Assembly (NCBI GenBank): GCA_964036665.1
Contig: OZ038527.1
Coordinates: forward strand, 15,593,835-15,657,834
Length of the DNA: 64,000 bases
Source of the DNA: Gordius sp. MW1
Taxonomy: Eukaryota > Nematomorpha > Gordioida > Gordea > Gordiidae
Direction of reading: 5' to 3'
In this document: positions 1 through 46,945 of the stretch, piece after piece
Layout of the letters: every line of letters begins with the position of its first letter
Position numbering within the stretch: the stretch's first letter is position 1
Notes under the pieces: generated by a model
What the model was told of the DNA's origin: nothing
Seen by the model: the letters and a program-made list of their open reading frames with translations, nothing else
Databases searched by the model: none
Made by a program: the position numbers and the translations under genes

Positions 1-3
1 TAG

Positions 4-108
4 ATCGATGTCACACTCAATCACCCATTGAGACTCCTTAAAGAAAAATATGCTAGCACTGCTGATTTGGTTATTTTAAGCCCAAAGCACAACACAACTC
101 ACAACTAA
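4..108 (+). CDS. Possible terminal exon of an unidentified upstream gene (partial)
   Basis: Directly after a TAG that could be a splice acceptor, an open frame of 34 codons runs to a TAA at 106-108. The peptide starts IDVTLNHPLRLLKEKY and ends in LVILSPKHNTTHN. The composition (amphipathic, Leu/Lys-rich, few Asn/Ile runs) looks more like coding sequence than the surrounding AT-rich DNA. It would be the last exon of a + strand gene that lies left of the window. I do not recognise the family. A chance open frame cannot be excluded because it is short. Confidence 0.3.
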   Translation: MDVTLNHPLRLLKEKYASTADLVILSPKHNTTHN

Positions 109-248
109 CTGAAAGGTCTTTGAAAATGAGGAGACTGTTATTGACATAAGGCTCCTTTATTAATTCAAAAATCGCTGCTGTCTACTCAGCATCCTTTTAT
201 CGAATGCGTTAATAACAAAACTACTACAGCCATATACATACATACATT
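109..248 (+). promoter_or_regulatory. Presumed original 5' flank and leader of DCAF1
   Basis: This short stretch lies between the possible upstream exon and the duplicated DCAF1 start site. Before the transposon at 254-1565 arrived, it would have directly preceded the DCAF1 initiator codon, so it is the best candidate for the ancestral leader and proximal promoter. It contains a short ATACATAC repeat at about 234-246. No clear TATA box or initiator can be named. Confidence 0.35.
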
Positions 249-362
249 ATGACGGGACCGGGTCAAAACCGCAGAAAAAAAACAGCAGAATTGGTCAGAA
301 CTGATCAAGACTGGTCAGAACTGGTCAAGATTGAACATCTGTTTATTGATATGATGAATTAA
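249..362 (+). other. Duplicated start codon opening a 37-codon upstream ORF
   Basis: The left target-site duplication of the transposon carries a second copy of the DCAF1 ATG (249-251). Reading from it gives 37 codons that run into the transposon end and stop at TAA 360-362. If transcription still starts upstream of 249, this would be an upstream ORF ahead of the true DCAF1 start at 1569. It has no recognisable protein family and is a by-product of the insertion. Confidence 0.6.
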
Positions 363-364
363 AA

Positions 365-765
365 TGTAAGTTTTAACCTATCTTTTATTCATAATTTATA
401 TTATAGATGTTGTATACTAATACTTCCATGGATATCATATTATATTTACAATTTTGGAAATAAAGGAAATAGAATTAAAAGTTTTAACCTAAAATTCTAT
501 TCATAATTTTTATTAAAGATGTTGAATACCAATACTTCCATGGATATGATATTATATTTATAATTTTGGAAATAAAGGAAATAGAATTTAAGTTTTAACC
601 TATCTTTTATTCATAATTTATATTATAGATGTTGAATACTAATACTTCCATGGATATGATATTATTTTTACAATTTTGGAAATAAAGGAAATAGAATTTA
701 AGTTTTAACCTATCTTTTATTCATAGTTTATATTATAGATGTTGAATACTAATATTTCCATCTTA
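365..765. repeat. Tandem array, about 111-bp unit, ~3.5 copies
   Basis: Units begin near 365, 479, 590 and 700 with AGTTTTAACCTATCTTTTA-like sequence and each contains ACTTCCATGGATAT. They differ by a few bases. The array fills the left half of the transposon at 254-1565. Confidence 0.85.
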
Positions 766-780
766 GATTGGTGAGGAGGG

Positions 781-868
781 TTAGTGTTTTAGGTCGGGGT
801 TAGTGTTTTAGGTTGGGGTTAGTGTTTTAGGTTAGGGTTAGTGTTTTAGGTCAGGGTTAGGGTTATAT
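781..868. repeat. 19-bp minisatellite, TTAGTGTTTTAGGTNGGGG
   Basis: Four and a half perfect or near-perfect 19-bp units start at 781, 800, 819 and 838. The unit looks like a degenerate telomeric repeat spaced by GTTTTAGG. It is internal to the transposon, so it is not a chromosome end. Confidence 0.85.
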
Positions 869-1568
869 TGATTATCTAAAAGTCATATTATTCTGCTACT
901 TTTTAATCCTGCTACTTTGACCCTTTAAAATGTTTTGCCTTTACACTCATTTAAGTTTTTTATATAAATATTTACTAGATTATAACAGACCAATTTTATT
1001 AATATTTACTAAATTATAACAGACAAATAATCAAGTGGTAATAATATTTAACATTGCATCTCTTTCTTTATATTTTAGATAACATGTTGTTTTTAGAAAT
1101 TGAGATGGGTCTATTTCACTGTTAGTATAATGTTCTTTTAAATTATTGATACAAGATTCTTTGTTGATTTCTTTCTTAGATTTTGGGTTTATTGTTTTTC
1201 CTTGGTTTATTTTATAGATATTTGAGTTAGTTTCTTTCTTTATCTTTTTGAGATAATCAATAAATTGATAAATATTGGGTCTGATGATTTTTACCCATAT
1301 TAGCTTTGATGTAAGAATATTGACCAAGGGTCAGTACCTGCCCACTTCTTGAAGATTTTTTAAATTCTAACCAAATATGCATTAAAATCTATATTTTGTA
1401 TACTTATTCTCTTCTTGCTCAAAAATGAGACAAATTCTTTAAAATAAGACATGAAAATAACAATGTTTTGTCGTATAATTCTAAAATGTCTATGCGCTTC
1501 GCATTTTCCATCCCCCCGACTTTTTCTGCTATTTTTTCTTAATTCTGCTATTTTGACCCCGATTCATT

Positions 1569-4500
1569 ATGACTTCACCTGTTGAAGTTCTCAATGGAAT
1601 ATTAAATGAATGGCATGAAAAGTCAAGAAACGAAGGCTTTATACCGTTGAAAACTTTAGAGAGGTAGATTTCATAATTAAAATTATAAATTTTAATTAGT
1701 TTATGTGAGGTTGTTGAAGAGCAAACCGATATTTTTTACAAAGGTGATCCTGATCCATTTGATGAAAGACATCCTGGTAAATCAATTTAAAAATTAAATT
1801 AAAAATAATTTTTATTTTGTAAAATGTTTTAATCTTATAGCAAGGATAGACCCAGAAGGTGGATTGGGACTTGTTCTGAAAGCTATTTTGAAACATGATG
1901 ATTTCATGAACAAATTGGTTAATGACTATATGAACTTTAGAAATTACTCACCGCAAGGTGAAAATTCGGTTTTATCAGCATCATGCAGGTTGTTTCTTGA
2001 TATACTGCCTGGAATGGAAACATCTTTTGTTTTATCTGAAGCGGTATATAGATTCTTGATTAATTTATTTTGCCTTATTAGGATGGCTTGTTGAATCGAT
2101 TATATGAATGGGCAGAAAAGGCTGAAGAACCTTTGTCTTCATATGCAATTGGAATTATATCTTCTGCAATGGAAATACAAGAATTAGCTTGTGAATCTAA
2201 AGAAAAAAATGCCAGACTAGTAAAGAAGACTATGTTTCTATATTAAACAAATATGTTTAGGTCCCTATTTTGCTTAAAAAGCTAAAATACCTGTTATCCA
2301 CTGATTCAGATTTTATAGAAAATAATCCTGTTAATAAACCATTTTCAGCTATATTTGGACAAAATTCTAATTTGAATCAAAAGATTATTCATGATGACGT
2401 TAGCCAAGGGTTTAAAAGGAAAAAGTCTAATTCTCCTAGATTTATATCTAACGCTATTCTTAAAGAGAATGACTCTAAAAAACGAATCAAAATTAATGAA
2501 AGTGGTGATCATATTCAAGTAACCTTGCTCTATTTGTAATTTCATAAATTTTATAAGGATAATAATAGTAACTCAAATTGGGCTGATATGCAGCCCCACA
2601 TTATTGGCTCATATAAAATGAGCCCTTTGACTTCAGAAATGAAACAAAGAATTATCTTAAAATACTTAACTGCTTTAGGAGGTTACCAAGAGGTATAACT
2701 AAAATTTTAATACAATCACAATATTTAAGCATGTCCCTGCAATTTTTGAACATGATGCCTTAAATCTCCTGTTTGACTATATTGAAATGGCCTCATCACC
2801 AAATTTTCACGATGCATGTTTAACATTTAAGTCACTTCACTATTTAGCCAGTTTATTTGTACACAAGAAGTTTGCTTTAGCATTTATTAATGCAGGGGGA
2901 CTTCAAAAACTTTTAAATATTTGTCGTCCATCCATGGCTGCCACTGGGGTATCATTATGCCTATATTATCTTGCCTACTATGAGGAAGCTATGGAGAAGG
3001 TAGTGTTTGTGATGCATTTGTTATTAATTATAATTATAATTAGCTATATGTATTATTTATAAAAATATATTTATAGATATGTCAATTGCCCTATTCTACA
3101 ATGCAGAAATTAGTTGAGTAAGACATTATTCTTAACTACCTTAAATTAACCTTTATATTTCTACATATAAATTTATCACAGATATGTTTTATGGCTGTTA
3201 GTTTGCTCACACCAATCTGGACGTACTCATGCAGTTTTATTTTTTTCTGTATCATTCTCATTCAAAGTTATTGTGGATATATTTGATTCCCAAGATGGGT
3301 TAAGGAAACTTTTTAATATAGTAACATACAAATCTTGCATTTTATACATTGATTTAAGTTGAGCACCCTGGATATTTTGAATAATGAAATTGAAACAGCT
3401 TTTATGTCGGAAGATGATCTATTTGTAAAAAGGCAATCTTGTAGATATACTATAATTGCTCTCAAAAAATATTTTGAGACGCACTTTTTGCTTTTATCTT
3501 CACAAAGTTTCAAATATGGCCAAAACAATCATACTGAAATTGCTATGAATCTTACTGACATAGAGATGGAGAACAGCAATCATTCTGGTTCTAATTTTAG
3601 TATACTAACTGTTGACACCCGAAATCAATCTTTGAATGATTCTAAGCCTTTGTCAATCACTTACAAAGTAATAATAATTATTTTTTATGCAATAAACATT
3701 GTTATATTTATGTTTTGTTTAGCCTGTGAAGTCAACACCTCAAATACTATTATCTGCCATGAAAACCATAGCTGATTTATACACGAGCCTTAATGACTGG
3801 AAGCCAATGCAAGAATTTTTGTGCTTGGGAGGCATACCCTTGTTATTAAAGATCATAATGCTTGCTGGTGATTGGATGTTCCATGGACGGTTTGCAACAT
3901 TAATATCATCTAAAATATATCATCAATATGAATTATTCCAATGAATTAATTGACGCATCTCATATTTTTTTGCATTATTCCTTCAGGGCAGAATTAGTGC
4001 GTAATGCACTGGATATCCTAAAGTTTGCAACCTTCATACAGCCGTCGATCCAATTGCAATTGTGCAAATCTCTCAATTTTTCGTTTGGCGACGAATCGCA
4101 TCAGTCCAGTTTGACTGGCATATCTACCATCCTAATGATGGCTGAAGGTACTATCGTCAGTGATCCCGAAGCTCAGAAAAGTGCATTGTCGGTCATTATC
4201 AATTGCGTGTCTGGTCAAGTTAATGGATTAAAGGTATGTGTTTAGAGCTATTATTGCATGTAAACACAAAATTATATTTCGAATAGACTCCTGTTTTAAT
4301 AAATAACAAGCGGCGATCGGCGAAATCTTCCGAAGATGTGCTCCATAAAATGTGGAAATCTATCCGTGATAATAATGGATTAATGGTGAGTAGTACCGTG
4401 TACAACTTTTTATTTCGATGTTTAGTTTAAAATACATGATGCTTGAATGTTTATTTAAATAGGTTTTACTGAATCTTTTGTCTGTCAAGACTCCACTTAC

Positions 4501-7500
4501 AGATGCTGACGAAATACGATACCTGGCATGTAAAGTGAGTATCATTTTAAATGTATATTTCCAAAATTGATACGGATCCCTTTTAAAAGGTCTCCCCCTA
4601 TCAACCCCAAGTCATTTATTAAAATTTTTACGACCTTAATTTTGGAGGAGAGGAGTTTATATTTAATGCTATAATTAATTTTAAACTTGTATATAGGCAT
4701 TGTATGGGTTGATGCGTAGCGAAACTTTGCTTCAAATAGCGTCTAAATTGCCCATATTTAACAACGGCCAATTGCAACACCTAATGAAGGAACCGGTGCT
4801 TCAGGATAATCTAGCCATACACCTTCAATTTTGTCAATACGCTAAGCAACTACTGCAAACAATAAAGGGTCAAAAGTGCGTCGACTTAATAGTCACATAT
4901 AAAATATTTCATTACCATTGCTTTTTTTTAATTTCCTTGCCTAATTTTTGACTCTTAGTGAACTCCTCACCTTTGAGATATTGCATTACTTTGATAAATA
5001 ATGAACTTAGTCAACTAACATTTTAAGTATATGGTGGATTATTATCACACTTTTGAAGCGACAAAATAATACCTCTTCATTTTATGCTGTTCTGTAGATC
5101 ACCTTCCATCGCGCACCTCTCCTTGGACCAAATGCATCGCGCTAACGTGGTAGCCCAGACCAAAATAAATTTCAGCAAGAAAGAGTTGTTGCACCTCATA
5201 TACAAATACCTGCTGGAACAGGGCCTCAAAGCATCCTCTTCTGCCCTAATCGAAGAGGCTTGGGACCTACTCTTTTCTGGCAACCCACACTCCGACGATG
5301 TTACGTCATTAATGCCTTTTGGCATTTCTTTGCCACCTAACAATTACCTTAACGCATTAACCAACTCGCAACAACCGTATGGCGCTATCGCCTTGAGGAA
5401 TGGGACATCGCAAAATGGTCCGAACAATTACATTCACATGAAACCCTTTCCTTCCAGAACGACCGCTTTCAAATGCATCACTAAAAGCCTTTGTGACTCC
5501 GAAAGTTCCAATGCTAACGGTACCCTTAAAAAGAGTAACGAAGAGCGCGATGCTGTTACAGATCTCACTTCACCACAACCTACCCCGGGCAGCATTGATA
5601 CTGTTGACCCCCATCGGCGTAGTAGTAAAAAAAAGGTGGGCCGCATGAAAGGAGATAAAAGTCAGAAAAAAGCCGTAAACGAACCTATCGATCCCCCTTC
5701 CACAAAAATAAGTAAAGGAGAAAAGTTAAAACTTAAATTATCCACTCATACGCCATGTTCTAATCCAAAAGCCAGAATTCTGTATAATACGCCCAAGGCT
5801 ACTCCTTCGTTCAATGGGTCGTTTACAGAAATTTCTGAAGCAACGCCCAATAACAACCTCTCTCTAATATCCACTGGCGCTTCGATCAATGCCAACCAAA
5901 GTGAGGGTAAAAAACCGAATTGGCAAAGGAGTGATAGCATTTTCTATCAACAAAGTCCTGCTTTGAGGTTAGTTTAGCTTTAAGATTTTCATCTCATTTT
6001 TTAAAGTTTTATAGCTTTAAAGCGTTACAAAAAATGAATTGATATTAACTGTTGTGTTTTTGCTTGTAGAAAACTGCATAACATGCAGCGGTTAGGGGAA
6101 ACGAGTATCAAATTGGAGAACATAATTACGGAATATCTCAGGGAACAGCATTCGCATTGTCAAAATCCGATGGGAACTTGTCCCCCATTTTCCCTCCTAG
6201 CTCCTCATCAATGCCCCATCCCACGAAACAGTCGATCAGCATCGCTCAATATCACCAAAAGACATTCTCACATTCCCGTACGAATGATATCTCTTTTTTT
6301 TGACTTTTCTACCCTGATTATATTGTCTGTGCTCTTTTATAGATTTTTCCACTGTACGGAGGCTTGGATGGGAAGTTGCTGGATAAAAAATACGTTTACA
6401 GCCGTTTGAAGGGGAGTAAAGTTATTAAAGATCCCGAAGAAGAAGCGCTATTTACGTGCTGCACATTTCAGAAGGTAAGCTAAAATGCACGTCGTAAAAC
6501 TTACACTTACATTTTCATGTTAAACATTTGACGGCGATTCAAAATATGAAAATCCTGGTCGCACTTAGCATTTTTTTTGAAAAATTATAAATTGTAATTG
6601 TCTAATTGCTTTTAAGAATTGTAGTCTGTTCTGCCGTTAAAGAGTTAATTGATGGTCAAATTTTGTAAAATCCGCATCACCTTTCTTAACTTGATAAATA
6701 ATTTATATTGAGACAGAGTCTCTAAAACTTTTACAAATAGTTACGAACAAATTCAACGAGCGATATTTATAAGTAGAAGATTGAGAGATCAATCTATTTA
6801 GTCTCACCCTTTAGAATCATTAAAACTGTACCTTAATCTCACGTGGCTTAAATTAATTTTTCTGTTTCTGACAGGGAAAAATTTATTAAACTAGAAACAA
6901 AACTAAAGTAATATGCATGTAAAATCCTCCATTGAAAAATGTTTTTAATTAAAATCGTTATAAATCATATTTGCGATTAACCATTCGCGTATTCGCGCGC
7001 GAAGGTAATTATTTTTTTTAACGTTACATTTTTTCGTTCTTAACTATTACTCGGTCCTTCGGCCCTCGTGGGAAGGGGGAGGGGAGAAGGGAAGGGGGGA
7101 CGACTCATCTTTACTTCGCATAAATGTATCATATTTGCTATGCAATTTATGGGCGAGAAAGGTGGGAAGGGGCGAGAATGCCTATAGGGGGGTATTAAAT
7201 GCCTAATGATTAATTAATTATTTATACAAATTTTCCATTTATAGGCAAAATGTAATATAGCAAAATGTAATATAGGCAAGGGTTAGGGTTAGATTTAGTG
7301 TTTGCATCTAGTTGCGTATTACATTAGTTTTTACGGCCTTTAGTGATTATGGGTCTAACAAACATTATATTATAAAACATCACAATGTTAAGAATTTGCA
7401 GAATTGTTGGGAGAAATTTTTGTTGAATTTGAACAATTTTTAATTAAAAAAATCAAAAATTTGGCGAATGGTCATTTTTTCTCCATTGGTCAGTACCAAC

Positions 7501-10500
7501 AGATACTCTATAAGTCAATGAAAGCCAAAAAAACGGAAAAAAAATTTGATGCTCACTTTGGCCAATGGTCATTTTTTTCCATCGGTCAGCAGCCAGCACA
7601 CGGTAAAAATGGATATAAATTCATAAGAGTAAAAAAAACGAAAAAAAATTTTCGAATCACATTTTGGCCAATGATCATTTTATTCCATTGGTCAGCAGCC
7701 AGGACACGGTAAAAGTAGATATAAATTCATAATAGTCAAAAAAAACGAAAAAAAAATTTTCGAATCACATTTTGGCCAATGGTCATTTTATTCCATTGGT
7801 CAGCAGCCAGCGGACGGCCAAAAAGTCATAATAGCAATGGTAGGAACAGGAACAATCATAATAGTCAAAAAAAACGGAAAAAATAATTTCGATTCACATT
7901 TTGGCCAATGGTCATTTTTTCCATCGGTCAGGAGCCAGCGGACGGCCAAAAAGTCATAATAGCAATGGTAGTAACAGGAACAATTATAATAGTCAAAAAA
8001 AAAACGAAAAAATAAACTTGGATTCACATTTTGGCCAATGGTCATTTTTTCTTTGGTCAGCAGCCAGTGGACGGCCGAAAAGTCGTATTGGCAATGGTAG
8101 TAACAGGAACAATCATAATAGTCAAAAAAAAGAAAAAAGAAACTTGGATTCACATTTTGGCCAATGGTCATTTTTTCATTGGTCAGCAGCCAACGGACTG
8201 CCAAAAAGTCTTATTATCAATGATAGTAACAAGAACAATCATAAGAGTAAAAAAAAACTCCGGGATTCTAACCCAAAAACTAGTTAAATTGCATAGCAAT
8301 TAAAAGTAAACAACTTTTATTTATGTTTATTATATAATAGATAATTTAACAAATCTTATATATAACACACCGAGGAAGATAGAGATGAGGGGTGGGGCAC
8401 CTCTTATGCATTAATTCAAAAAATAACACAGCGAGGGAGATAGAGATGAGGGGTGGGGCACCTCTTTCTCATGCATTAATTTAAAAAATCGATAACCTAA
8501 TATACCCAATGCAAATAGATAGGGAGGGTGTATGCGGACGCGGACGTGACAAGACATCGGTAAACAAAATCAAAAGCGAGCCCATAAATTGCATAGCAAT
8601 TAATAAACCTAACCTTAGACCAGCTTGTAAAATTTTTCAACTTTATACCGACTCAACCTTGAATATCAAAGTTCCCGTTCATTTTTTAGGGCAACGCCAA
8701 CGTGATATACATCGGTACGGAAGCGGGTGAAATTAGGACGTATAACGTAGAAACGGGAGCCGAGGACACGACATACGTCCTAGGCAACATTATAAACCCC
8801 ATCCATTGGTGCCGTGTGGCTCCCACCCATTCTACCATTGGTAGCTCTGTCCTGGCAACTGACAAGAATGACTCCATAATTGCCACATACTCCTTCGAGC
8901 AGTGGAGACCTTGTGCTTACGTATGGAATCTTACCGACACCTCCCAGCACAAATACCTGTTCGAGAATTGCCATCACCCCGTCTTTAATAACAGCGGCTT
9001 GACGTCGCGCCTCTTGGCCACTGAAAATGAGAAAGCTCACGTAACTTTACCCTTTAAATATACGCATCTCTAGCTACAGATTTTTATACTTCTGGTTTTG
9101 ACTTATCTAATTTGTGCATGTTTGAGTAAAAATCTGTTTCTTCCGTTCAAACTTGTGTCCGCTTTCATTAATTTTCTACTTAAACATGTTTTTTCTCCCT
9201 GAATCCTATGGACCTGGCTGCTTGTGAATCATTTTAGCATATATTATACATTATCATATATGTGTTTTAGATATATGATTTGTACACGGGGACGAAGATT
9301 GTAACGCTATATGATGCATCTCTCAGCAATATGTATGCCAAAAACAGGGCCGTGTTTAACGTTACGGACGATTACGTTCTCTCCGATGGTATCCTGTGGG
9401 ATTCGGAGAGTGGCCATGCCGTTCACAAGTTTGACAAACTAAATCCCAACATTAGTGGTGTATTTCACCCTAACGGCTTTGAAGTCATCATAAACACCGA
9501 AGTGGTAAACGATATTATTTTTACTTTATTGCAAGACACATTTATAACGTTTTGGGATTTATAGTGGGATATGCGGACTTACAAATTGCTCAACACCGTT
9601 CCCACATTGGATCAATGTCGAATTCATTTTAATCCAACCAACGATATCATATACGCACGTAAGTTTCCAAAGTATTAAATTTAAACTATCACCCGGGAAA
9701 TTTTGGACGGTTACAACTATTTTATCTAGTAGAAACGGTTATTGAAGTCGGGTTTGGATCTTTTGTCAATCAATATATGAATTATTTAGCGTTTATAATT
9801 TAAAATTTAAACCAAATAGGTCACTATTAAAAATTTCTAGCATTGATTTTAACACCTGATCTGGGGAAGAAATTTTTGGCAATGAGTTTAATTTGCGATA
9901 AAGATTCACATTTTAAACCGAGTTGGGGTTAAAAAATTTACTTACGCTGAACTTACACCGCCCCGCCACATTAATCAGGCACCCCCGATATTTATCATTA
10001 AACCTTATTATCTCCCCTTACACCAGTGCTTCACGTGGAAAACGAAGATGAAATAGGTGCCGTCGGGACTGATGACGAATTTGGGATGAAATCCTGTTTC
10101 GATACCTCAGTTAGGGTCGTAGATGCCAACACTTACACCTCGCTCGTTACCGTGGATACCCGCAAGACCATATTTGACCTGTGCCCCGACACTTGCAACA
10201 AGTACGTGGCCATCGTGGAAAGTTGTAGCAAGGATAACGCCCTAGACGCCCTCCTACCCCGACACGACGATGACGACGACCGCTTGTGTAGGCTTTACGA
10301 AATTGGTCGTTCCAAGGACGTGCAACAAGAAGTATTAAAACATCCATATATGGTTTTGTGGAAATTTAATTGAGTTTGATAAAGATGGTTTTTTGGTGGG
10401 GAAAATGCAATTTTATTATATTGGTTGAGGGTCAAATTTTTTAATATTATACATACGTCAATATCAAGTCAATCGTGGTTTGACTAAAAATGTATTTTGC

Positions 10501-14307: not shown

Positions 14308-21578
<7,271 letters not shown>

Positions 21579-25316: not shown

Positions 25317-28300
25317 ATGCTAAAAATAAGATTTATTAAGTCTAATAACCTCCATACATTTGTTATAGATAAGCCATTAAAAAGCCATCCAAAAAATATT
25401 GTTATTATTGAAGGAGTTAGGACACCTTTTGTTCAATCTGGTACAGTATTTAAAAATGAAACTCAGCATTCTTTAGCCAAGGTTGCTATCAAGTAAAATT
25501 GTGTTGTATTTTGAAATATAATAGTAATTGTCTATGCAACTAAAACATTTTTCATTAGTTTTCATAATTATGTTTTAATTATATTTTTCAAAAATATATA
25601 CAAGTGGCCTTTTGAATCGATCTAATATTCATAAAGATCAAATTGAATACGTTGTTTATGGAAATGTTGTTCAGGAATGCAAAACTACAAATATTGCAAG
25701 AGAAGTATATATCAGTGTTTTAACACTGCTATATTTATTTATTTTTGATAAAGCTTTCTTTTTTTGTTTTTATTTTGTATTGCTATTGACATATTTCAAT
25801 ATAAACCCATACTTTATTCTCTAAGAGAGTAATTATAAATTTCCAATGTTAATAATTGTACATTTAAATTATTAAATTTGGTTTTGTTCTTTCAAGCATT
25901 TACTTAAGGAATTATGTGATTCAATCATTATTTAATTTAATAAATTTTTTGTTATATTTAAATTCAGGCTGCACTTTTAGCAGGCATATCAGATAGGATA
26001 CCAGCTTCAACAGTAAGCATGGCCTGCATATCATCTAATCAAGCCATTACTTCATGTAAACTTTAATTAATATTTAAAAATTTGTTGAAATAGTTGCCTT
26101 TTGTATGGGTCTTTGCAATTGCTAACAACTTTCCATTTCTAACAATTATTGTTCCACATGATTATATGCATGCTCAATCTGAATTTACAAGCAGTCATAT
26201 GACATAGTCTAATGAAAAATTATTTGTTTGCTATAATTAAAAGTTTATATATAAAAGTTAAAATATCTTTATTTTTTGGTTTTTATAGACTTTATTATTA
26301 ACATTAATATTTATATCAGTTTAATTTCAATGCACAATAAAATGAGTTGAATTAAGTTCTAATATTTAGCTCATTGCTAACCATTGGGAAGTTGCAATTA
26401 AAACACCATTTTTTTGTTTTAACAAAAAGCTTGTGGACTATTTTATAACCTGACAGCGTCTTTAAATAGGTTAATTGCTAGGTGTCCGAAAGTTTGAGCT
26501 ATTGGCTATTTTGCGACCCTGTGAGTAGGTTAGGGCTTTATATTTTGGTTAAAGGGGGCGAAAATGTCATGGCGGGCGAATCCCATTTAAGGATTTAACC
26601 ATCTATCCGGTTGATAGTAGAATGTCAGGTCGCGTTCTTCCTATTAAAGAAGGTCCAGACTCTAAAATGGACATTATATCACTTTTAAGGGTGGTATGGG
26701 TGGGGGAATTTATTTTAATGCCTTGTATATTATTTTGCGCCGGACTAGGGCCGGAGCCACATCTTTGGGAAACCTCAAATGATTTTTTTTCTAATATTTA
26801 TTAACTTATAAAAAATCCCCCACCATTCCAAGCCATTAACTCCTTTTCTTAATTTAAAAATATTCCTAGAAGTACCCCTTTAAAAACTGATATATTTAAA
26901 TGGATCGGATTAAAAAAAATAGCCGCAAACTGAACTTTGGTCAATAAGCAGTGGCGTAGCTAGGTGGAGGCCGTGAGGGCCCAGGCCCGCCCTAGAGCAA
27001 AAACCTGGCACCATGGCTTCCCCGAAAAATCTTTGGCCCCCTGGCCCCTTAAGCAATTTTTCATAATTTTTTATAATTAAGATACAATATGACAATTATA
27101 ATTATTTGTTTCTGAATAAAACTTTTAATTCTGAATTTAATAATATTTCAATATATTTTTGAAATTGTTTAAAAAGTTCAGAACGAGTTTCAAAGCCCAA
27201 ATATTTGTTTAATAAATGCAATCTTAACGGTTAATAGCCTTATATTGACTTAAAATGATATTAGAATCACTATCAAATAAGGCGAAATAATTAGATTTTG
27301 AGATTTCATTATTACGTTCGAAACACATTAAAAAATCAAAAAAGTATGTCACTTTTTACTCTTTTGAATTCTTTTATCAGAAGTTACTATTATGAGTTAG
27401 ATCTGCAAAATGCCGAAATGATAATGGCAAAAAATTATGTAATATTTTATAATTCTTTACATTAATAAAATAAAATGTAATGATATTTTTTCACCTATTA
27501 AAATTTCACCCCCTACAGTGTTTCCAAATTTTATTATTTTAATTCAATTTTTTTAACTATACTAATAACTGCGTTTCATTGTATAAATACGGTGGATTTG
27601 GATTGATAGCGTAGGTAGAGGGAAATGGAACGCAATATTTCGGACACTTATGGTCCATCTTCAGGAAAAAAAAGGAGAAGATGAAGTCTCAAAAAATAAA
27701 AATGAAGTAAAGTGATTATTGACTATATAATAACCGCGTGCTCATGCGAAAGTCGCTCTAGTGCTGTTAATATGCTCGAATTGGTTCTGCTTGTATAGTG
27801 CTAAACCTGGCAATAGGCATATATCTCCTACCATTACCATCATCATAACCAGCACCATGCTGCTTAAAACCCGGTTACTAGCCTGGCAGATTAAAGTTGC
27901 CATGGTTGCTGGTTGAGAGAGATGTAAGTAACCGGGCATTTGGCCGATTGGATTGATATAAACCGTGGTATCGAGCAGGCTTGTTTTAAACTAAACATGG
28001 TTTTTAGCAAATTTAATTTTAGCTTACTATTAGAGTTGGCAGCTGCCATATAATGCTAATCAATATTTTTCAATCATATATTAATCCTATAAGGTGATAA
28101 AAAAATTAAAATATATTATAAAGAACTTTGCCCCCCTTCCTTTATTTGTCCCGTTGTTTTGCCCCCCTCCCCCCTATTTTTTACCCTCTTTCTCACCAGA
28201 GGGGAATGGGGGTGTTTTCCGTCCCCCTTATTTTTACCCTATTTCTGCTCAACCAGCAACCATGGCAACTTTAATCTGCCAGGCTAGTAACCTGGTTATT

Positions 28301-31300
28301 AAGCAGCATGGTGCTGGTTATGATAATGGTAATGGTAGGAGATATCTGCCTATTGCCAGGTTATGGTTTTAGCATTTTGGCATATTAACAACACTAAGTC
28401 GCTCTCATTGCTAAAACGGATTGAAACTTATCTCCGTTCCACAATTGGACAAGATAGGTTATCGTCATTAGCATGGGCGTAGCCAGCATTGGAATTAGAG
28501 GGGGGCAATAATAATTAAGGGAGGCGCAATATGATTATTTTTTAGGCAAACCTTTAATAAATTTCAACAAATTTTTAGATTTAGAAAGAGGCAGCCGCTT
28601 TTCCATGCCCCCCCCCCCCACTTGCTTGACTACGCCTATGGTCATTAGCTTTATTGAGCTTAGAATTTGACTTTTTTATATGTTATTCCCCCGGATAATA
28701 TCAAAAATTCATTCGCAACATCGAGGAAAAGGCGCAATGAACTGCTATCATTTAAACTAAAGACTAGTTTTAATATCCAATGAAGAAATATCTGGGCTTT
28801 GTAACTCGTTTTGAGCTTTTTAACATTTTCAAAATATTATTAAATTCACGAAAATCCCATCCTGGATTCAATTTATTTGTCCATCTCACATGCTTATTGT
28901 TTGACAAACATATCTAGCATATTTTTATGTATAAAGCCAATGATTTTAGAAAAATGGCTTGCACACCATTTTTTCCCCTTTGTTAGTGGTACCCCATGAT
29001 AAGTTTGAGCAGCAATCGCTTTTAAATTAATATTAATAAATTCCTGAATTTATAGACAATTGTTAATGCATCCAAACTTTCACAACTAAATGATCAGACA
29101 AGGTCTTAATTAGATAAAACCTTAAGCGAGTGTGATGTTAAAAAATACAAAAAAAGGAGCGGAATTTTAAGTTTGACAAACGTTTATGGGGAAAAAATTT
29201 TCAATTGCTTTTGACCCCTTCCCAATTGTGTAAAATCAAAGCTCGGCCCCCCCAAGGCAAGAAGGCTAGCTACGCCACTAATGAGCAAAGTGTAACGACT
29301 TTTCTTTTTAATAACTTTAAGCAACGGATGTAAGCATAGACATAGCCAGACTCCCGGCCCTTAGGGTCCGTTTCTTTTCACCTGCTCAAATTGCATATCA
29401 AATGAACTGCTTCTTTATGAAGTGTAGAAGAGCCTAGGTTTAAAACTTAACAAAAACAACACCTAGCCCTGGGGCTCTGATGACGTCCAAAAGACTGAAA
29501 ATGGGGTCCAGGGGAAAAGCCCCTGCGTAAAGGACCTAATTTGAATTTGTTAAAAGGTAATGTAGTGGGTGCTTTGATAATACATTCAACTTCTGGGAGT
29601 AATTGCGGTCTCAGGGCTAAAGTTTTTAAGAGTTCTGGGTCCTCCAACATCAACTCGGAAAAAATCAGTTAAGCTTCAAGCCACTCATGACCCAATAAAC
29701 CTAGGACCAAATGAACTAGGGTGAAATTTTTGCCGGCATTGTAGCCCGATAAAAGGTAATAAACGAAGCGCGATAAGAAGCTAGCATCCCAATCCTTTTG
29801 TCCTTAGCCAATTTGAAATAGGGTCCTGGGGTTGACGTTGGTAGACCAGCCATTTGGAACTAGTACCAGGGGTGGGTCATCGTTCGGTGTTTTAAGCCGG
29901 TCGACTAGGTCATCGGCAAATTATAGGAAGTGATAAATGTCGCCGATAATTTTAAGGCAGCTGGGCTTATAGCTAAATCGCCGACGGTTTTTAGTGCATT
30001 GAAGCCAGGACGCATGTCTAATTAAATGTTGAATCTTGTATCCAGGGGGCTTTTTCTAAAACTATCTTAACTTTCTGAAATGTCGTGTAGGATGAATGAA
30101 ACTAGTGAACAATGTTGAATTTCATTTCAGGATGTTGAAATAAATAGTTATTGTTAAAGTTAAAAGCGCGATGTTAGGAAGAGTTTTAAATAGTACCGTT
30201 TTGAACTAGGGATAATCAAGTTATGTAAAAGATCTTATGCCCATTGGCCACCTATTGGAAGCCTAGTGGGTAAATTTATACATTTTAACTTTTGAGTGAA
30301 GTCTAAAAGTGCGGAAGCGTTTATATTCAATTTTAGGCATATAGGTTCAAAATCTCGGATTAAATGTAATGCCTTTAAACTTTCTTCTGGAGGGTCACAT
30401 ATACTAAACATTCCGTGTCAAGGCACTTTAAGTTGATAAATGTAGAGTTGTTAAATTGCTAACATTCTTCAAACTCCAGACGCGAGCACGCACACTGAGT
30501 TGCTTAATATGCGCGTTAGCACAATATGTGCTCGCTGTTAGGTGCACTAGGCAGAACAGTAGCATATAAAAATGCTCGAGGGTCGAGCAGAAACTCGAGC
30601 AGATGGTAGCTGGAGTTGAAGAAAGTTAGCAATTTAACAACTCTAGATAAATGGATTAGGTTTTCTGTACTTAAGAAAAACATGAGTGGACCTAAGGGTC
30701 ACCCTTGGGTAAATGATTCACCCATCTTCAGTCTTGATTTACAGCCTTTACTAATAATGTATTTGAAAATGTCGAGTATTCATCGAGGTAGTTGTTAATA
30801 ATAATCGTTCACTTGCGATTAAATGCATCGCAATGTTCAGAATAACCCTGAAGTGATAGAAGGCGATTTGTTCCAGACAGGCAGCCCCAAAACCGCCTTT
30901 TACCTCAAATCCTACTTGATGAGGAACCAATTTATCGCCTAAACTTGCTCTGATTACTTTGCAGATGAGTTTCAATAGTACGTCGAAAAACATTGTTGAT
31001 AGCAATGGGTCTTACTTATCAGGTTTTTCGATGACAATGAAGTTAGCGTCAGACAAGGAATTTTTCAAGGATTTATTTCCGTTAATAATTAAGTTGCCTT
31101 GGAGGAAAAGATTGATGCGCTTACGCTTTGTAAGTTAATGAGTCTATGAATAGACTGGGCAAAAACTATCACGGTCGACTACAAAATCCACGGGAGATAA
31201 ATTGATGGCTTCACGATCAGGGGTCAGATTTGTTAGGAATTTTCTGCCCGAACCCGGCCCGGTTCAATTCTCAAACCTAATTGCCCGCCCGAGCCCGCCC

Positions 31301-34300: not shown

Positions 34301-35354
34301 ACTTAAATTATTAGCATTGAATTTTGAATATATTTCAAACGATACATCTGTTAGCTATTTTTAATTGCTATTTGTATAAATTAAGGAAATAGTTTTTGTG
34401 ATTTTAATTAAACCTTTAATAAAAGCAATTTTTATTTAGGGATTTTCAGTATGTGTCGCAAGATCCCAAAGATCAGCTATTACTTGGGTAAGTTTAATTG
34501 AATATGACGATTTATTATGTTCAAAGACCCGCATATGCCATTCCCAAACTACTGGACAGAAACGGATTGACATTGAAAGATATAGACGTTTTTGAACTTC
34601 ACGAAGCATTTGCCGTAAGAATAAATACCTTCACAAAATTACGTAAAATTTTATTAAAGGGGCAAGTTTTGGCTAATCTCAAAGCCTTAGATTCCGACTG
34701 GTTTAATCAAAATTACGTCAAACGAAAAAACAAGGTTACCCATAATTTTTGCACTTGCTACGTGACTTACCATGGATGTCATAATATATATATATATATA
34801 TATAACAAATTTATAAGGTTGGAGAAATTCCAATGGACAAATTAAATTTGTGGGGAGGTTCGCTCTCTATTGGTCACCCTTTTGCCGCTACGGGTGTAAG
34901 GTTGGTGATAACCGCTGCGAATCGATTACACAAGGAAAATGGGCGTATAGCTTTGGTTGCTAGTTGTGCTGCCGGGGGTCAGGTGTGCTATTAGATTTTA
35001 ACAGGATTTTTTATTTCACAATTTATAAGAGGTCCTCCTAACGAGTTAGTCTGTTATAGTGTTCGTAATGTGTAGTCCACACAAATCTGAGGCTTACTCC
35101 ATTTTTTATCTCGTTAAGGATGACATTCTAGGCATACTCATGCTTCTAACTTTTCTTGTAATATATATTCAAGTCATATATAATTTTTTATTATATTTGC
35201 CTAAATTTTCACTCTCTACAATTGATTCGATGTTCACAATTTTCTCTATTAAGTGCCTTTCACGTTGGCAATTATTAAGTGTATATATAGTCTTAAACTC
35301 TTACTCTTTTCATTTTCATTACAGGGTCACGCGATGTTAGTTGAGAGGTATTGA
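25317..35354 (+). CDS. HADHB: Mitochondrial trifunctional enzyme beta subunit (3-ketoacyl-CoA thiolase)
   Basis: 11 exons, 447 aa: 25317-25492, 25605-25704, 25968-26055, 32650-32837, 33338-33518, 33860-34064, 34440-34487, 34527-34614, 34660-34734, 34818-34982, 35325-35354. It catalyses the thiolytic last step of long-chain fatty-acid beta-oxidation and in the family pairs with the alpha subunit (HADHA) at the inner mitochondrial membrane. The Lys/Arg-bearing N-terminus is compatible with a targeting peptide. Thiolase landmarks are all present: nucleophile Cys112 in [13 protein letters not shown] (His354), GHP (His403) and Cys433 in [18 protein letters not shown] and [13 protein letters not shown] match the trifunctional beta branch rather than other thiolases. 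Intron 3 is 6.6 kb and packed with transposons, while intron 8 is 45 bp, a multiple of three and stopless. Confidence 0.95.
26056..26940. other. Start of HADHB intron 3, unassigned
   Basis: AT-rich intronic sequence. The patch at 26440-26800 is less AT-rich and may be an old repeat, but no end structure or coding similarity is visible. Confidence 0.4.
27759..28396. mobile_element. 638-bp palindromic hAT-like element
   Basis: Identical AGTCGCTC duplications lie at 27751-27758 and 28397-28404. The ends are TAGTGCTGTTAATATGC and GCATATTAACAACACTA. The inverted arms are about 160 bp each, with matching segments CAACCAGCAACCATGGCAAC and TAATCTGCCAGGCTAGTAAC. The right-centre (28120-28240) carries a poly-C block related to the minisatellite at 39935-40256. 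There is no transposase. It lies in HADHB intron 3. Confidence 0.85.
28472..28640. mobile_element. CATGGGCGTAGCC-type MITE
   Basis: 169 bp, flanked by identical GTCATTAG at 28464-28471 and 28641-28648. Starts CATGGGCGTAGCCAGC and ends GACTACGCCTATG, with a G-rich left and C-rich right interior. Confidence 0.8.
29280..30600 (-). other. Distal, unreadable part of a decayed retrotransposon region in HADHB intron 3
   Basis: This stretch continues, in minus-strand order, downstream of the reverse-transcriptase remnant. A 68-codon minus ORF (29653-29447) and scattered open stretches are present, but frames are broken and no motif can be named. A 40-bp inverted repeat (AAATTGCTAACATTCTTC / GAAAGTTAGCAATTT) brackets 30450-30640. 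Confidence 0.35.
30600..32080 (-). pseudogene. Decayed non-LTR retrotransposon reverse transcriptase, split by a hAT insertion
   Basis: Minus-strand fragments line up as one ORF. Order: 32076-31960 (pre-RT segment with [20 protein letters not shown]), the hAT at 31959-31218, then 31209-30680. The latter contains [18 protein letters not shown], the [13 protein letters not shown] segment typical of animal LINE RTs (usual form QLGFGVKGG), and TQG-stop-PLGPLMF at 30722-30681, corresponding to the QGDPLGPL motif. Stops and frameshifts make it nonfunctional. It lies antisense in HADHB intron 3. The family is inferred from motif order, without a search. Confidence 0.65.
31218..31959. mobile_element. 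hAT-like element with GCCCG-rich arrays
   Basis: 742 bp with identical TTCACGAT duplications (31210-31217 and 31960-31967). The ends CAGGGGTCAGATTTG and CAATCTGATCTCTG are inverted. Subterminal arrays of GCCCGA and GCCCGCCCGA occupy 31248-31330 and 31840-31945. The interior is AT-rich without a credible ORF. It interrupts the retrotransposon ORF. A larger relative is at 53131-54849 and a short one at 58613-58777. Confidence 0.85.
32081..32649. other. End of HADHB intron 3
   Basis: AT-rich intronic sequence without recognisable repeats, ending in the acceptor TTTTCCAAG before exon 4. Confidence 0.5.
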
Positions 35355-38130: not shown

Positions 38131-38138
38131 CTTATTAT

Positions 38139-39526
38139 TAGAGCTGTTAAAAGTTCCTTTTAAAAAGGAACTTGTCAAGTTCCAGTTCCTTTGCCTAAAA
38201 TGGAACTAGTTCCAGTTCTTAGTTCCTCATTTTAAAAAGGAACTAGTTCCAGTTCCTTTTTTAAATTTTTTTTTAAAATGTACAAACATCTTTTATTAAT
38301 TCATAAAACCAATATATTATATATTACAATTTATAAAAATCATCAGGTAATATGTTTATTTGATTTTAACAAAATATTATTTTCAAAGTTATCGTCTAAA
38401 AGACTTGTTCGCTTGTCTCCAAATAAAATTTTTCCCAAGCTAAATAATCTTTCCACAGGGGCACTTGATGGTAATGGCGTATTATATTTAATAAATAGTT
38501 TTTTTAAATGGGGAAAACTGTCTAAAAGACTTAAATTCCGGTTATTAGAAAGCAAAAAACGTTCAATTGATTCATTCTTTTCATCATTTTTTAATTCAAA
38601 AAAATCCATTTCTGATAAACTAGGTCCAGCCTGTTGAGATTTAGGAACAAGCAAATTGATATCCTCTAAAATATTTGCTTTCATGTTCGCAGCGCATTCT
38701 TTGCGAATCCAATTCCAATCTGTTTTAAAAGCAGGATGGAGAGTAGCCGCCGACAGATTTTGTTTGCTAAAAAGATCCAAAAATCTATTAATTAGCTAGA
38801 TTATCCGTTATAAAAAATATTAAACCTGTTATTAATGCTTTAAGTAATAGCATCTTTTAATGGCTTACACCATTTCAAGGAGCCCATAGATTCAATTTTC
38901 ATCAATATTTGAGTGATTGTCGGGGTATAATATGCAAGATACATGTAGTTTTGCCCTTCCAAAAACTCAATTGCCTTTACAATTGGTTCCATGACTTTTA
39001 AAACCCTTTTAAAATAATGCTAATGTTTAAATTAAAATAAAATTTTACATCGCAATATTCTGCAATAAAATCACATTCATCTAAAGTGAACTTTTGAAGA
39101 TTCAGCTTGTCACATACACTTTGTAACCCATCAAATTTTCCCTTTATAATGGAAGTTATGTGCCTCATAGAAAAGAATTCCATCTTGTAATTACAGGACA
39201 TATAAAATAACAACCAAGTTGTTTTTTAATCAACTCAGCAGCATGGGTTGATCTACCTTGCAAGTTCCACAACTGCTTAACCAATTAAAGGAAATGAACT
39301 TTATATAAATTACCATAGGTCGAAAAATTTATTTAACAAACACTACCGTGAATAAAATACTAAATGATATTTAAATTATAAATTAATTCAAAAATTTTTA
39401 ATGCAAATTGAAATTGGCAAAAGGAACTTAAAAGGAACTAGTTCCTTTTGCGATAAATTCAGAAAAAAAGGAACTATTAGTTCCAGTTCCTAATTTTAAA
39501 AAGGAACAGTTCCTTTAACAGCTCAA
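38139..39526 (-). mobile_element. hAT element with GGAACT arrays and transposase remnant
   Basis: Identical 8-bp duplications CTTATTAT lie at 38131-38138 and 39527-39534. The ends are TAGAGCTGTTAAA and TTTAACAGCTCAA. Both subterminal regions (38150-38265 and 39420-39516) are dense in GGAACT/AGTTCC, such as AAAGGAACTAGTTCC. The interior encodes the C-terminal part of a hAT transposase on the minus strand, so this is an internally deleted element. Confidence 0.9.
38343..39213 (-). pseudogene. hAT transposase, C-terminal fragment with dimerisation domain
   Basis: Three minus-strand fragments in order: 39213-38998 (FDGLQSVCDKLNLQKFTLDE), about 39000-38830 (EPIVKAIEFLEGQNYMYLAY, TPTITQILMKIESMG) and 38780-38343. 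The last contains FIKYNTPLPSSAPVERLFSL and GDKRTSLLDDNFEN, the classic hAT C-terminal dimerisation signature. The N-terminal zinc finger and first catalytic parts are missing, so it cannot be active. It independently confirms the hAT assignment of this element. Confidence 0.85.
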
Positions 39527-41088: not shown

Positions 41089-42723
41089 CTAAATTCTTTT
41101 AATAATTTGTATAACATCTTCGTCGTACAGCTCGTGTTCGCGCCCCACTTTTTGGGGATTATGCTTTACGGAACTACCCCACACCAAAGCGTGCTTGAAG
41201 TGGGCCAAGATGGTTTTGTGGATGGCGTTACAAAAAGCCTCGACAGTACTACAGCTATGCTTTAGGATGACGGGAGAATCGTAATCGGGCACGCGACCTT
41301 TGGGTTTGGTGTAAACCCGAATGAGATTCATGTAATCCCACATGCTCTCCAGCAACTCGTCGAAATTCCAACGGAGGTGGGCCGAGATGGGAACGCAGTG
41401 GGGAAGTGAAGATATCACATTTAATTCCTCCACCGATATCTCGTCTATTTTGTTGAGCACGTACAAGCAGGGGATGTACACGCGATTCCCTTCAACCACG
41501 TCTATCAAGTCGTCCGCCGTGGCAGAGTCTCCCTTAATCAGGATGTCGGCATTGTGGATCTTGTATTCGGAGAGGATGCTCCGCACGCTATCTAAGTCCA
41601 GTTCGGATTGGCAGGCGCCAGACATGTTGAGATTTATTCCGCCCTTATCCTTCTTCCTAAACAATATCGAGGGTCGTGGCTTATTCAGTCTGATACCAAA
41701 ACTTTCGAGTTCCTTCTCCAACAACGTCTTGTGCTTCAGCGGTTTCATCACGTCCAATACCTAAAATCGCGATAAAGGTTTTAACTGGTCGGTCAAAAGC
41801 GGTGAAACGACTACATTTTTGGGCAAATGGATATCTCTAAAATTTTGAGTCAAAAATCAAAGAATTTGTTAAGGTAATGGCCAATATGGCTATAATACCC
41901 CACGGGCAAAAAACTAGATTGCTCTAACTCTTAAATTTTAGGTCGCGCTTGAAATTTACCATGAGGATCAGATCACAGGTTCTGGCCACGGCTATAACTT
42001 GTCGGCCTCGCCCTTTACCATCTTTAGCACCTTCTATGATACCTGGTAAATCTAGCAACTGAATCCTTGCTCCTTTGTACTTAACAACCCCGGGCACAGT
42101 AGTGAGCGTAGTAAATTCGTAAGCTGCAACTTCAGAGTATACACCAGCCAAGTTCGAGAGTAGGGTACTTTTACCTAGTGTTGGCAAACGACTAAAAAAG
42201 CTAAACTAACATAGAGATTATTTTATGCATACTCAAATTGATTATTTCCTTTGTTCTACAGGGGTAGAATTAAAGATCTGGAACTATATAACTTGACTAA
42301 ATAAGCTGCTAATAATTTAAGCCACATGTTAATTAATACTAGAAGAAATAATGAACTAAACCATGACAATAAAACAAAAATCAATCATAATTTTATTAAA
42401 CTATTTATGTATGTTTTTTAAAGATATAAACAGAGTTATAGAATTTTGTTGTCTTAGGCAGAGGTTAAACTAAGAACAAATTGTATTATATAACACTTAC
42501 CAACAGAAGGAAATCCAACAAATCCTACACGAGAATCCCCAGTTTTGGCCACATCAAATCCCTCCCCAGTTCCACCTCCACTGCCACCTTTAGGGGTAAT
42601 AAGCTCTCGGCGCAACTTGGCCAATCGAGCCTTTAATAAACCCAAATGAGCCATGGTCGCTTTGTTGCGTTGTGTGCGTGCCATTTCTGCCTCTATCTCA
42701 GCTATTCTTTCCAACACACCCAT
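41089..42723 (-). CDS. DRG1: Developmentally regulated GTP-binding protein 1
   Basis: Three exons in transcript order, 369 aa: 42723-42501, 42174-41960, 41760-41089. It is a cytosolic, ribosome-associated GTPase of the OBG/DRG family. In the family it acts with DFRP1/ZC3H15 in translation. Visible motifs: helix-rich start [18 protein letters not shown]1 GFPSVGKST (70-78), G3 DLPG (116-119), the DRG segment [19 protein letters not shown]4 NKID (249-252), G5 region PISAH, and the C-terminal TGS domain with [25 protein letters not shown] and EDVIQI. Length fits the family (~367 aa). An in-frame ATG nine codons upstream (42750) would lie across a probable 5'-UTR acceptor (TTGCAG), so the 42723 start was chosen. 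Very conserved; no defects seen. Confidence 0.96.
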
Positions 42724-44618: not shown

Positions 44619-45087
44619 AAAACGGCTGGCTGGTTTTTCCCAGCGTATTGCTAAGCTTAGTTGTTGACGTTTATTTTCACCCAGCCTTATCAGTGTTAGG
44701 TGAATTTTCTTGGGAGAGCTTTGGCGTTTGGCGTTTTTGTAAAAAAGACCTATAGCGTTTTGGGTGAATGTTTCGGGGTGACCTTTGGCGTTTAGGTTTG
44801 GGTGTATTAAACACCTAAAGGGTGTGGGTGGATAATATTATTAACCTTTTGGTTTGGTTTTGGTCGTTTGGGGTGGGGCATGCAAATATATCAATTTTAG
44901 GTAATAAACTTTTAATTTAAGAAAATAAAAATAGTTATAACATGACGTCACTGAGTTTAAACTTTTCCCATTGTGACGTCATAATGAAAAGTATTATAAT
45001 TTATAATCTAATCTCTAGTAAATTATAGTTAATTATTATGCTTTGCTTATGCTGCATTATAGAAGGAATGTTTTATTTATGAAAAAA

Positions 45088-45790
45088 AGATGGCTAAAAT
45101 CTGTTAAATGATTTCAAAAATTATTTTTTAGACATGCCAGAAATTTTATAAAAATTTATAAAAGGTGGGAAATTTCGCTTTGTAGAATCTTCTATATAGA
45201 TGGCTAAAATCTGTTTAATGATTTCAAAATTTATTTTTTAGACATGCCAAAAATTTTATAAAAATCTATAAAAGGTGGGAAATTCCGCTTTATAGAATAT
45301 TCTATAAAGATGGCTAAAATCTGCCTAATGATTTCAAAATTTATTTTTAGACATGCCAAAAATTTTATAAAAATTTATAAAAGGTGGGAAATTTCGCTTT
45401 GTAGAATCTTCTATATAGATGGCTAAAATCTGTTTAATGAATTCAAAATTTATTTTTTAGACATGCCAAAAATTTTATAAAAATTTATAAAAGGTGGGAA
45501 ATTTCGCTTTATAGAATATTCTATAAAGATTGCTAAAATCTGTTTAATGATTTCAAAATTTATTTTTTAGACATGCCAAAAATTTTATAAAAATTTATAA
45601 AAGGTGGGAAATTTCGCTTTGTAGAATCTTCTATATAGATGGCTAAAATCTGTTTAATGATTTCAAAATTTATTTTTTAGACATGCCAAAAATTTTATAA
45701 AAATTTATAAAAGGTGGGAAATTTCGCTTTATAGAATATTCTATAAAGATGGCTAAAATCTGTTTAATGATTTCAAAATTTATTTTTTAG
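45088..45790. repeat. 110-bp tandem array, left arm
   Basis: Units start with GATGGCTAAAATCTGTTTAA at about 45088, 45198, 45307, 45417, 45527, 45638 and 45748. Each contains GACATGCCAAAAATTTTATA and AAAGGTGGGAAATTTCGCTT. Neighbouring units alternate between CTTTGTAGAATCTTCTATAT and CTTTATAGAATATTCTATAA, so the higher-order unit is about 220 bp. Confidence 0.9.
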
Positions 45791-46549: not shown

Positions 46550-46945
46550 ATAAATTTTCATAAAATTTTTGGCATGTCTAAAAAATAAATTTTGAATTCA
46601 TTAAACAGATTTTAGCCATCTATATAGAAGATTCTACAAAGCGAAATTTCCCACCTTTTATAAATTTTTATAAAATTTTTGGCATGTCTAAAAAATAAAT
46701 TTTGAAATCATTAGACAGATTTTAGCCATCTTTATAGAATATTCTATAAAGCGAAATTTCCCACCTTTTATAGATTTTTATAAAATTTTTGGCATGTCTA
46801 AAAAATAAATTTTGAAATCATGAAACAGATTTTAGCCATCTATATAGAAGATTCTACAAAGCGAAATTTCCCACGTTTTATAAATTTTTATAAAATTTTT
46901 GGCATGTCTAAAAAATAATTTTTGAAATCATTAAACAGATTTTAG
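46550..46945. repeat. 110-bp tandem array, right arm (inverted)
   Basis: Reverse-complement copies of the left-arm unit, registered by CAGATTTTAGCCATC at about 46606, 46716, 46826 and 46936. They can pair with the left array to form a long hairpin. The same alternation of two unit types is visible. Confidence 0.9.

What the first reader, a model, noticed from the sequence alone, without database searches (positions are those of the whole stretch)
246..1573. Transposon inserted exactly on the DCAF1 initiator codon, duplicating it
The 8-bp target duplication ATTATGAC flanking the element at 254-1565 contains the ATG. The right copy is the true DCAF1 start (its N-terminus aligns with the family); the left copy (249-251) opens a 37-codon uORF. 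The original leader is now 1.3 kb from the coding sequence. Either the element supplies a new promoter, it is spliced out or transcribed as leader, or the gene is silenced on this allele.
Basis: partly seen in the sequence, partly recalled or inferred. Interest (0 to 1): 0.85.

Follow-up and report, generated by a model that had tools for sequence, protein, structure and literature searches.

The report
Transposon inserted at DCAF1 start codon
A 1.3-kb mobile DNA element appears to have landed on the start codon of a DCAF1 gene, duplicating that codon so that the protein-coding sequence stays whole while its old leader is pushed 1.3 kb away; it is a neat but ordinary kind of insertion whose effect on the gene needs RNA data.

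Summary
The right copy carries the DCAF1 ATG (1569-1571). My hand-made gene model is open for 1,544 residues and matches human DCAF1 near both ends. No transposase was found, so it looks nonautonomous; its superfamily is open.

A read-through leader meets 24 ATGs, and the 1451-1585 uORF overlaps the DCAF1 start. Clean splicing-out is poorly supported: any AG at or before 1448 keeps that uORF, and the next AG, 1587, scores badly. Without splicing, only a start in the last 76 bp (1493-1568) gives a leader free of ATGs. So either the element's end supplies the transcription start, as published for a rice MITE, or this allele is weak or null and polymorphic. No reads, relatives or genome were available to decide. 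Ordinary in kind.

The parts
1..244 (+). presumed original DCAF1 leader/promoter side, now cut off from the coding sequence; holds an acceptor-like AG at 229
   Evidence: acceptor score 7.0, exceeded by 3.2% of + strand AGs in the window; identity as leader is inferred
245..253 (+). left copy of the target-site duplication CATTATGAC, with duplicate ATG at 249-251
249..362 (+). 37-codon upstream ORF started by the duplicated ATG
254..1565 (.). nonautonomous DNA transposon, 1312 bp (254-1564 if the duplication is 9 bp)
   Evidence: the one ORF of 60 aa or more lying inside it (1031-1327, -) has no Pfam match above cut-off
254..292 (.). left terminal region, GGGACCGGGTCAAAACCGCAGAA plus a second GCAGAA motif
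1521..1565 (.). right terminal region (inverted match to the left end)
888..924 (.). internal partial copy of the right end (82% over 39 aligned columns)
356..761 (+). 3.7 tandem copies of a 110-bp unit
777..864 (+). 4.6 tandem copies of a 19-bp unit (AGGGTTAGTGTTTTAGGTC)
1451..1585 (+). 44-codon upstream ORF in the element that overlaps the DCAF1 start out of frame
1493..1568 (+). upstream-ATG-free stretch before the DCAF1 start; 1497-1568 is 78% pyrimidine; candidate region for a new transcription start
   Evidence: function inferred
1565..1573 (+). right copy of the duplication, CATTATGAC; ATG at 1569-1571 is taken as the DCAF1 start
1569..1663 (+). DCAF1 exon 1 ([31 protein letters not shown]...)
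1569..10340 (+). DCAF1 gene as modelled by hand, 22 exons, 1544 residues without a stop; the gene probably runs on to about 12350 with an acidic tail
   Evidence: the part past 10340 was read from ORFs and sequence only

Best explanation
A nonautonomous DNA transposon of 1.31 kb inserted through an 8-9-bp staggered cut spanning the DCAF1 initiation codon. Repair copied the cut site, so the ATG and its nearest context (C ATT ATG AC, -4 to +5) now exist on both sides and the protein is unchanged. (Shown: the repeat, the ends, the open gene. Inferred: that it moved here by transposition.) An unspliced message from the old promoter would meet the left ATG and 24 ATGs in the element, and no splice site I could find removes them all: any acceptor at or before 1448 keeps the uORF that overlaps the start. 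The allele can therefore be expressed efficiently, as far as the sequence shows, only if transcription starts inside the element's last 76 bp, which hold no upstream ATG. I take such an element-end start site as the most likely way the allele works. (Inferred; no promoter was shown.)
For: Repeat plus inverted ends; 2 of 300 shuffles reach the composition-weighted score. DCAF1 identity and open frame. ATG and splice survey. 1497-1568 is 78% pyrimidine, reached by 0.1% of 72-bp stretches of the window. Precedent for the geometry: in rice OsPT1 a MITE in the 5' UTR moved the start site, so that the new 5' UTR is 54 bp of the MITE plus 354 bp of the old 5' UTR (PMC12902297, passages). Precedent for an outward promoter near a transposon end: Barkan and Martienssen 1991 on Mu1 (title seen in another paper's reference list; paper not held). 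Homozygous fly mahjong (DCAF1) mutants die at a late pupal stage (PMC2903597, passages), so a fixed null seems unlikely.
Against: No RNA evidence. No convincing core promoter: TATAAW at 1474 is a motif found 3.4 times per kb in the window, and the YYANWYY matches at 1531, 1541 and 1550 one found 15.7 times per kb; no eukaryotic promoter predictor was run. A 76-bp ATG-free stretch is not unusual: at least six longer gaps between ATGs, 83 to 191 bp, lie in the element itself. Only one copy of the element is known, so its ends are not confirmed by a second (none in the window; none by exact patterns).
Confidence: 0.42

Rival explanations
1. The insertion is as described, but this allele is a strong hypomorph or null that is heterozygous or rare; the assembly happened to keep it, and the empty allele supplies DCAF1.
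For: 24 ATGs, a uORF overlapping the start, a stop in frame at 1554 and no acceptor that would bypass that uORF except the poor 1587; DCAF1 loss is lethal in flies, so a null would persist only beside a working copy. The perfect duplication fits a young insertion, though 9 identical bases bound the age only loosely.
Against: No second haplotype or reads to test it; the coding sequence is open over 1,544 modelled residues, as expected either way.
Confidence: 0.36
2. The element is removed from the message as an intron, or its tail is joined to an upstream or trans-spliced leader, so that transcripts from outside the element survive.
For: A GTAAGT donor at 366 (score 5.2), good acceptors inside the element (for example 1096, 1179, 1217, 1252) and a possible one at 1448 (-1.4, inside the range of true sites). 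A donor at 262 with the AG at 1587 would, read directly, keep the frame and give MTGPVLNG.
Against: Splicing to 1448 or earlier keeps the ATG at 1451 and its overlapping uORF; 1587 scores -6.8 against -2.5 to 11.1 for the 17 true sites; the 262 donor scores -0.7, near the worst true donor (-0.8). The matrix rests on 17 introns of one gene, so it is rough.
Confidence: 0.1
3. The ATG hit by the insertion was not the original start: an upstream coding exon was spliced to the AG at 229 and read on in frame (230-248 is open), so the insertion removed a longer N-terminus.
For: Acceptor-like AG at 229 scoring 7.0. The frame is open from 216 to the ATG, with TAA at 213 (read). Human DCAF1 has 13 residues before the aligned part, this protein has 7.
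Against: 3.2% of + strand AGs in the window score higher, so one such site in 245 bp is unremarkable; a short N-terminal difference between distant orthologues is not surprising.
Confidence: 0.08
4. The repeat and inverted ends are chance or an assembly fault, and no transposon inserted here.
For: Only one copy is known; the ends are imperfect; two weaker statistics are not significant, and the significant one was devised after them.
Against: 2 of 300 shuffles; 0.24% chance of the flanking repeat given the ends; a second GCAGAA-type motif next to each end.
Confidence: 0.04

Closest known systems
Rice OsPT1 with a Harbinger-type MITE in the 5' UTR (PMC12902297; search listing and passages)
   Same: Nonautonomous element between promoter and coding sequence; in the paper transcription starts inside the element, 54 bp of which begin the new 5' UTR.
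   Different: There 354 bp of the old 5' UTR remain before the start codon, which the insertion leaves untouched; it is a Harbinger-type element in a plant, and the start site was mapped by RACE.
Maize Mu1 outward promoter (Barkan and Martienssen 1991; title seen in a reference list; the link to hcf106 is recalled)
   Same: Transposon at a gene with a promoter reading outward near the element end.
   Different: Mu elements share similar inverted repeats of about 215 bp and make 9-bp duplications (PMC2774946); here the ends match over about 25-40 bp and no outward transcript is shown.
Merlin superfamily (PMC8101967; passages)
   Same: 8- or 9-bp duplication; left end begins GG; highly imperfect ends and internal tandem repeats are described in some Merlin families.
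   Different: The right end does not begin GG; no transposase here.
hAT-like elements in the same window (27759-28396, 30443-30645, 38139-39526)
   Same: 8-bp duplication next to inverted ends.
   Different: Five of their six ends begin TAGAG or TAGTG and one TTGAG, each followed by NTGTTAA; this element's ends read GGGACCGGGTCAAAA and GAATCGGGGTCAAAA.

Membership tests
Nonautonomous DNA transposon with terminal inverted repeats (general) | direct target-site duplication immediately outside the ends | tested here: met
   9 bp; for chance
Nonautonomous DNA transposon with terminal inverted repeats (general) | terminal inverted repeats | tested here: met
   imperfect: 17 of 25 in register; (not significant alone)
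Nonautonomous DNA transposon with terminal inverted repeats (general) | more than one copy in the genome | not testable with these tools
   no genome held; no second copy in the 64-kb window
Merlin | 8- or 9-bp duplication | tested here: met
   criterion from PMC8101967
Merlin | conserved terminal 5'-GG | tested here: not met
   left GGG; right GA (8-bp reading) or AA (9-bp reading); criterion from PMC8101967
Merlin | related to a DDE_Tnp_IS1595 transposase | not testable with these tools
   no transposase found inside; no autonomous partner known
Mutator-like (MULE) | 9-bp duplication | tested here: inconclusive
   9 bp fits, but the 8-bp reading gives more symmetric ends
Mutator-like (MULE) | target consensus SW-SWNNNNNWS-WS of maize Mu (a preference, not a rule) | tested here: inconclusive
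   CATTATGAC fits the inner SWNNNNNWS; the outer pairs TA and TT each miss one base (read; consensus from PMC2774946)
Mutator-like (MULE) | mudrA-type transposase in the autonomous partner | not testable with these tools
   no genome held
hAT | 8-bp duplication | tested here: met
   an 8-bp match is contained in the 9 bp
hAT | ends of the TAG/CAG type (recalled; seen in the local hAT-like elements) | tested here: not met
Outward-promoter insertion allele | transcripts starting inside the element end | not testable with these tools
   no RNA data; only the ATG-free stretch 1493-1568 is shown
DCAF1 (VprBP/Mahjong) | N-terminal and propeller sequence match to human DCAF1 | tested here: met
   E 2.3e-41 and 8e-81; Pfam gave no family for the N-terminal 182 residues

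The most novel reading that the evidence does not exclude
The target duplication regenerated a start codon with its core context and the element's pyrimidine-rich, ATG-free tail became the promoter and leader of an essential ubiquitin-ligase gene in one step: a transposon that rewired DCAF1 without changing a single residue, now fixed in the species.
Probability: 0.25. Interest if true: 0.45.

Novelty: new member of a known kind. Interest (0 to 1): 0.28.

Why it matters
If the allele works, it is a compact natural example of a gene's promoter and leader being replaced while the start codon is copied intact. That is testable by mapping 5' ends in carriers and non-carriers. If it does not work, it is a marker of a segregating lethal or weak allele of a gene whose loss is lethal in flies. 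Either way the class of event is known; the exact overlap of duplication and start codon is a curiosity.

Tried and rejected
Looked for relatives of the gene or element and found none: DCAF1 N-terminus in viral contigs (one pattern match, no relative); exact patterns from the element in viral contigs (0 each) and from two other repeats of the window, in the hope of finding the same organism (0 each); one exact 35-base element-end pattern in genome contigs, a bacterial and archaeal collection (0). Exact patterns are insensitive and these collections hold few eukaryotes, so this says little. The genome of the window is not held. Rfam found nothing at its gathering scores and ARAGORN no tRNA. The organism was not identified; introns as short as 36-41 bp and 26-41% G+C in 2-kb bins were noted but not used to name it.

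Considered and dropped: CATTATGAC as a common word. It occurs 4 times in the window against 0.5 expected, but the other two copies are mirror positions in the arms of one foldback element, so they count as one further occurrence. Considered and dropped: a separate element at 254-924 made by the internal end copy; no repeat of the left flank follows 924 (read). Poly(A) signals in the element: 4 AATAAA against 2.9 expected and 4 ATTAAA against 3.6, unremarkable.

Literature: eight searches. Searches found no paper. The others listed 10 of 10, 12 of 414, 15 of 24 and 15 of 16 papers; no title or abstract start among those listed reports an insertion at a DCAF1 start codon. This does not show that such cases are absent from print: only part of two lists was seen and most subscription journals are not in the library. 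The torenia paper (PMC4234012, passages) concerns an upstream retrotransposon and was not a close match.

Full report
What is there. The window begins with 244 bp of sequence, then CATTATGAC (245-253), an A+T-rich block of 1,312 bp (254-1565, or 1,311 bp if the duplication is 9 bp), and CATTATGAC again (1565-1573). The block's ends are imperfect inverted repeats: GGGACCGGGTCAAAACCGCAGAA on the left, GAATCGGGGTCAAAATAGCAGAA on the right read inward, each followed by a second GCAGAA-type motif. The 8-bp reading makes the ends more symmetric (17 of 25 in register against 7 of 25); the 9-bp reading uses the full match. I cannot choose between them from one copy.

Is it more than chance? Three statistics were run in turn and they differ. 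A loose local-alignment score is matched by some 8-mer pair in 9 of 40 shuffled windows. Raw in-register matches of at least 17 of 25 occur 127 times in 300 shuffles. A composition-weighted in-register score, which gives more credit to matched G and C, is reached in 2 of 300 shuffles; 17 matches with at least 9 on G or C occurred in 0 of 300. Given ends at these places, a flanking repeat of 8 or 9 bp within 12 bases of them occurs in 2,474 of 1,030,250 random placements, or 0.24%. In the real window, with two tandem/foldback regions left out, the two pairs that outrank this one, 30435/30646 and 27751/28397, look like hAT-type MITEs (label recalled from their ends and 8-bp duplications), and two ranks below it 38131/39527 encloses an ORF with a weak hAT dimerisation match; the pair between them, 39993/40218, lies in a C-rich tandem array. 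The scan therefore picks up what look like real transposons. I treat the insertion as real at about 95%.

The gene. Exons that I joined by hand, guided by open frames, GT-AG and likeness to DCAF1, give 1,544 residues from the ATG at 1569 without a stop to position 10340, with 17 introns up to 6342 and 4 more up to 10026. The first 182 residues match human DCAF1 at E 2.3e-41, starting at residue 8 here and residue 14 in human; 375 residues of the propeller part match at 8e-81. Pfam gave no family for the N-terminal 182 residues or for the ORF at 5057-5974, and only a weak propeller match (E 0.053) for 8690-9070. ORFs and sequence beyond 10340 suggest the acidic tail up to about 12350, but I did not model them. 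The ATG sits where the family's N-terminus begins, though residues 1-7 are not aligned. An in-frame TGA at 1554-1556 inside the element means no start further upstream can be used in frame on an unspliced message.

What the insertion does to the message. On the + strand the element holds 24 ATGs; the left copy of the duplication adds a 37-codon ORF at 249-362; and a 44-codon ORF from 1451 runs to 1585, past the DCAF1 start in another frame. I built donor and acceptor matrices from 17 DCAF1 introns (36-222 bp long). Leave-one-out scores were -0.8 to 7.7 for donors and -2.5 to 11.1 for acceptors. The element has good acceptors up to 1252 (score 5.2); between 1440 and 1600 the only AGs are 1448 (-1.4, within the range of true sites but below 16 of 17) and 1587 (-6.8, outside it). 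Splicing to 1448 or earlier keeps the overlapping uORF from 1451. A donor at 262 joined to 1587 would keep the frame (read) but both sites score poorly. Hence a message from the old promoter is unlikely to make DCAF1 efficiently. Without splicing, the only start region that gives a leader free of upstream ATGs is 1493-1568. Its last 72 bp are 78% pyrimidine, a level reached by 0.1% of 72-bp stretches, but neither this nor the length of the ATG-free stretch is proof of a promoter, and the TATA-like and initiator-like words there are common in this window.

Most likely working. Two readings are close: the element's end supplies the transcription start (0.42), or the allele is weak or null and not fixed (0.36). 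I put the first slightly ahead because the coding region is open and the gene is needed in flies (homozygous mahjong mutants die at a late pupal stage; PMC2903597, passages), and because a published MITE did something very like it: in rice OsPT1 the new 5' UTR is 54 bp of the MITE followed by 354 bp of the old 5' UTR (PMC12902297, passages). Splicing (0.10), an originally longer N-terminus from an upstream exon joined at the AG at 229 (0.08) and chance or assembly error (0.04) are less likely.

What family. The one ORF of 60 aa or more inside the element has no Pfam match above cut-off, so the element looks nonautonomous. It does not share the ends of the local hAT-like elements. Merlin elements have 8-9-bp duplications and ends starting GG (PMC8101967, passages); only the left end does here. 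Maize Mu makes 9-bp duplications and prefers the 5' ends of genes (PMC2774946, abstract and passages); CATTATGAC fits the inner part of the Mu target consensus, weakly. I leave the superfamily open. No relative of the element or gene was found in the collections that could be searched, which hold few eukaryotes.

Verdict. The finding is correct in its anatomy and can be narrowed in its consequences. It is a new instance of a known kind of event, pleasing because the duplication copies a start codon, and its functional meaning rests on RNA and population data that are not available here.

Noticed in passing
38139-39526: A hAT-like element: TIRs TAGAGCTGTTAAA / TTGAGCTGTTAAA, 8-bp duplication CTTATTAT at 38131 and 39527, with a weak hAT dimerisation-domain match (E 0.0098, below cut-off) in the ORF 38346-38795 (-) inside.
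   Followed up: partly
30435-30653 and 27751-28404: Two short hAT-like MITEs with 8-bp duplications GATAAATG and AGTCGCTC and ends TAGAGTTGTTAA and TAGTGNTGTTAA.
   Followed up: partly
44663-47376: A large foldback element with arms of at least 686 nt, 98% complementary, built partly of 110-bp tandem repeats; its arms happen to contain CATTATGAC.
   Followed up: partly
16416-18215: Two inverted arrays of a 32-bp repeat (GCTATAGGAGATGGGAG type) on either side of about three copies of a 234-bp unit; perhaps another foldback-type repeat.
   Followed up: no
888-924: An internal partial copy of the element's right end, 82% over 39 columns, of unknown origin.
   Followed up: partly
1664-2729: Very short DCAF1 introns (36-41 bp in 5 of the first 6), a possible clue to the organism.
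   Followed up: no
41092-41760 (-), 63502-63999 (+), 34498-34842 (+): Other genes by Pfam: a GTPase with MMR_HSR1_Xtn and TGS domains (DRG-like, name recalled), a symplekin C-terminal domain, and a thiolase C-terminal domain.
   Followed up: no
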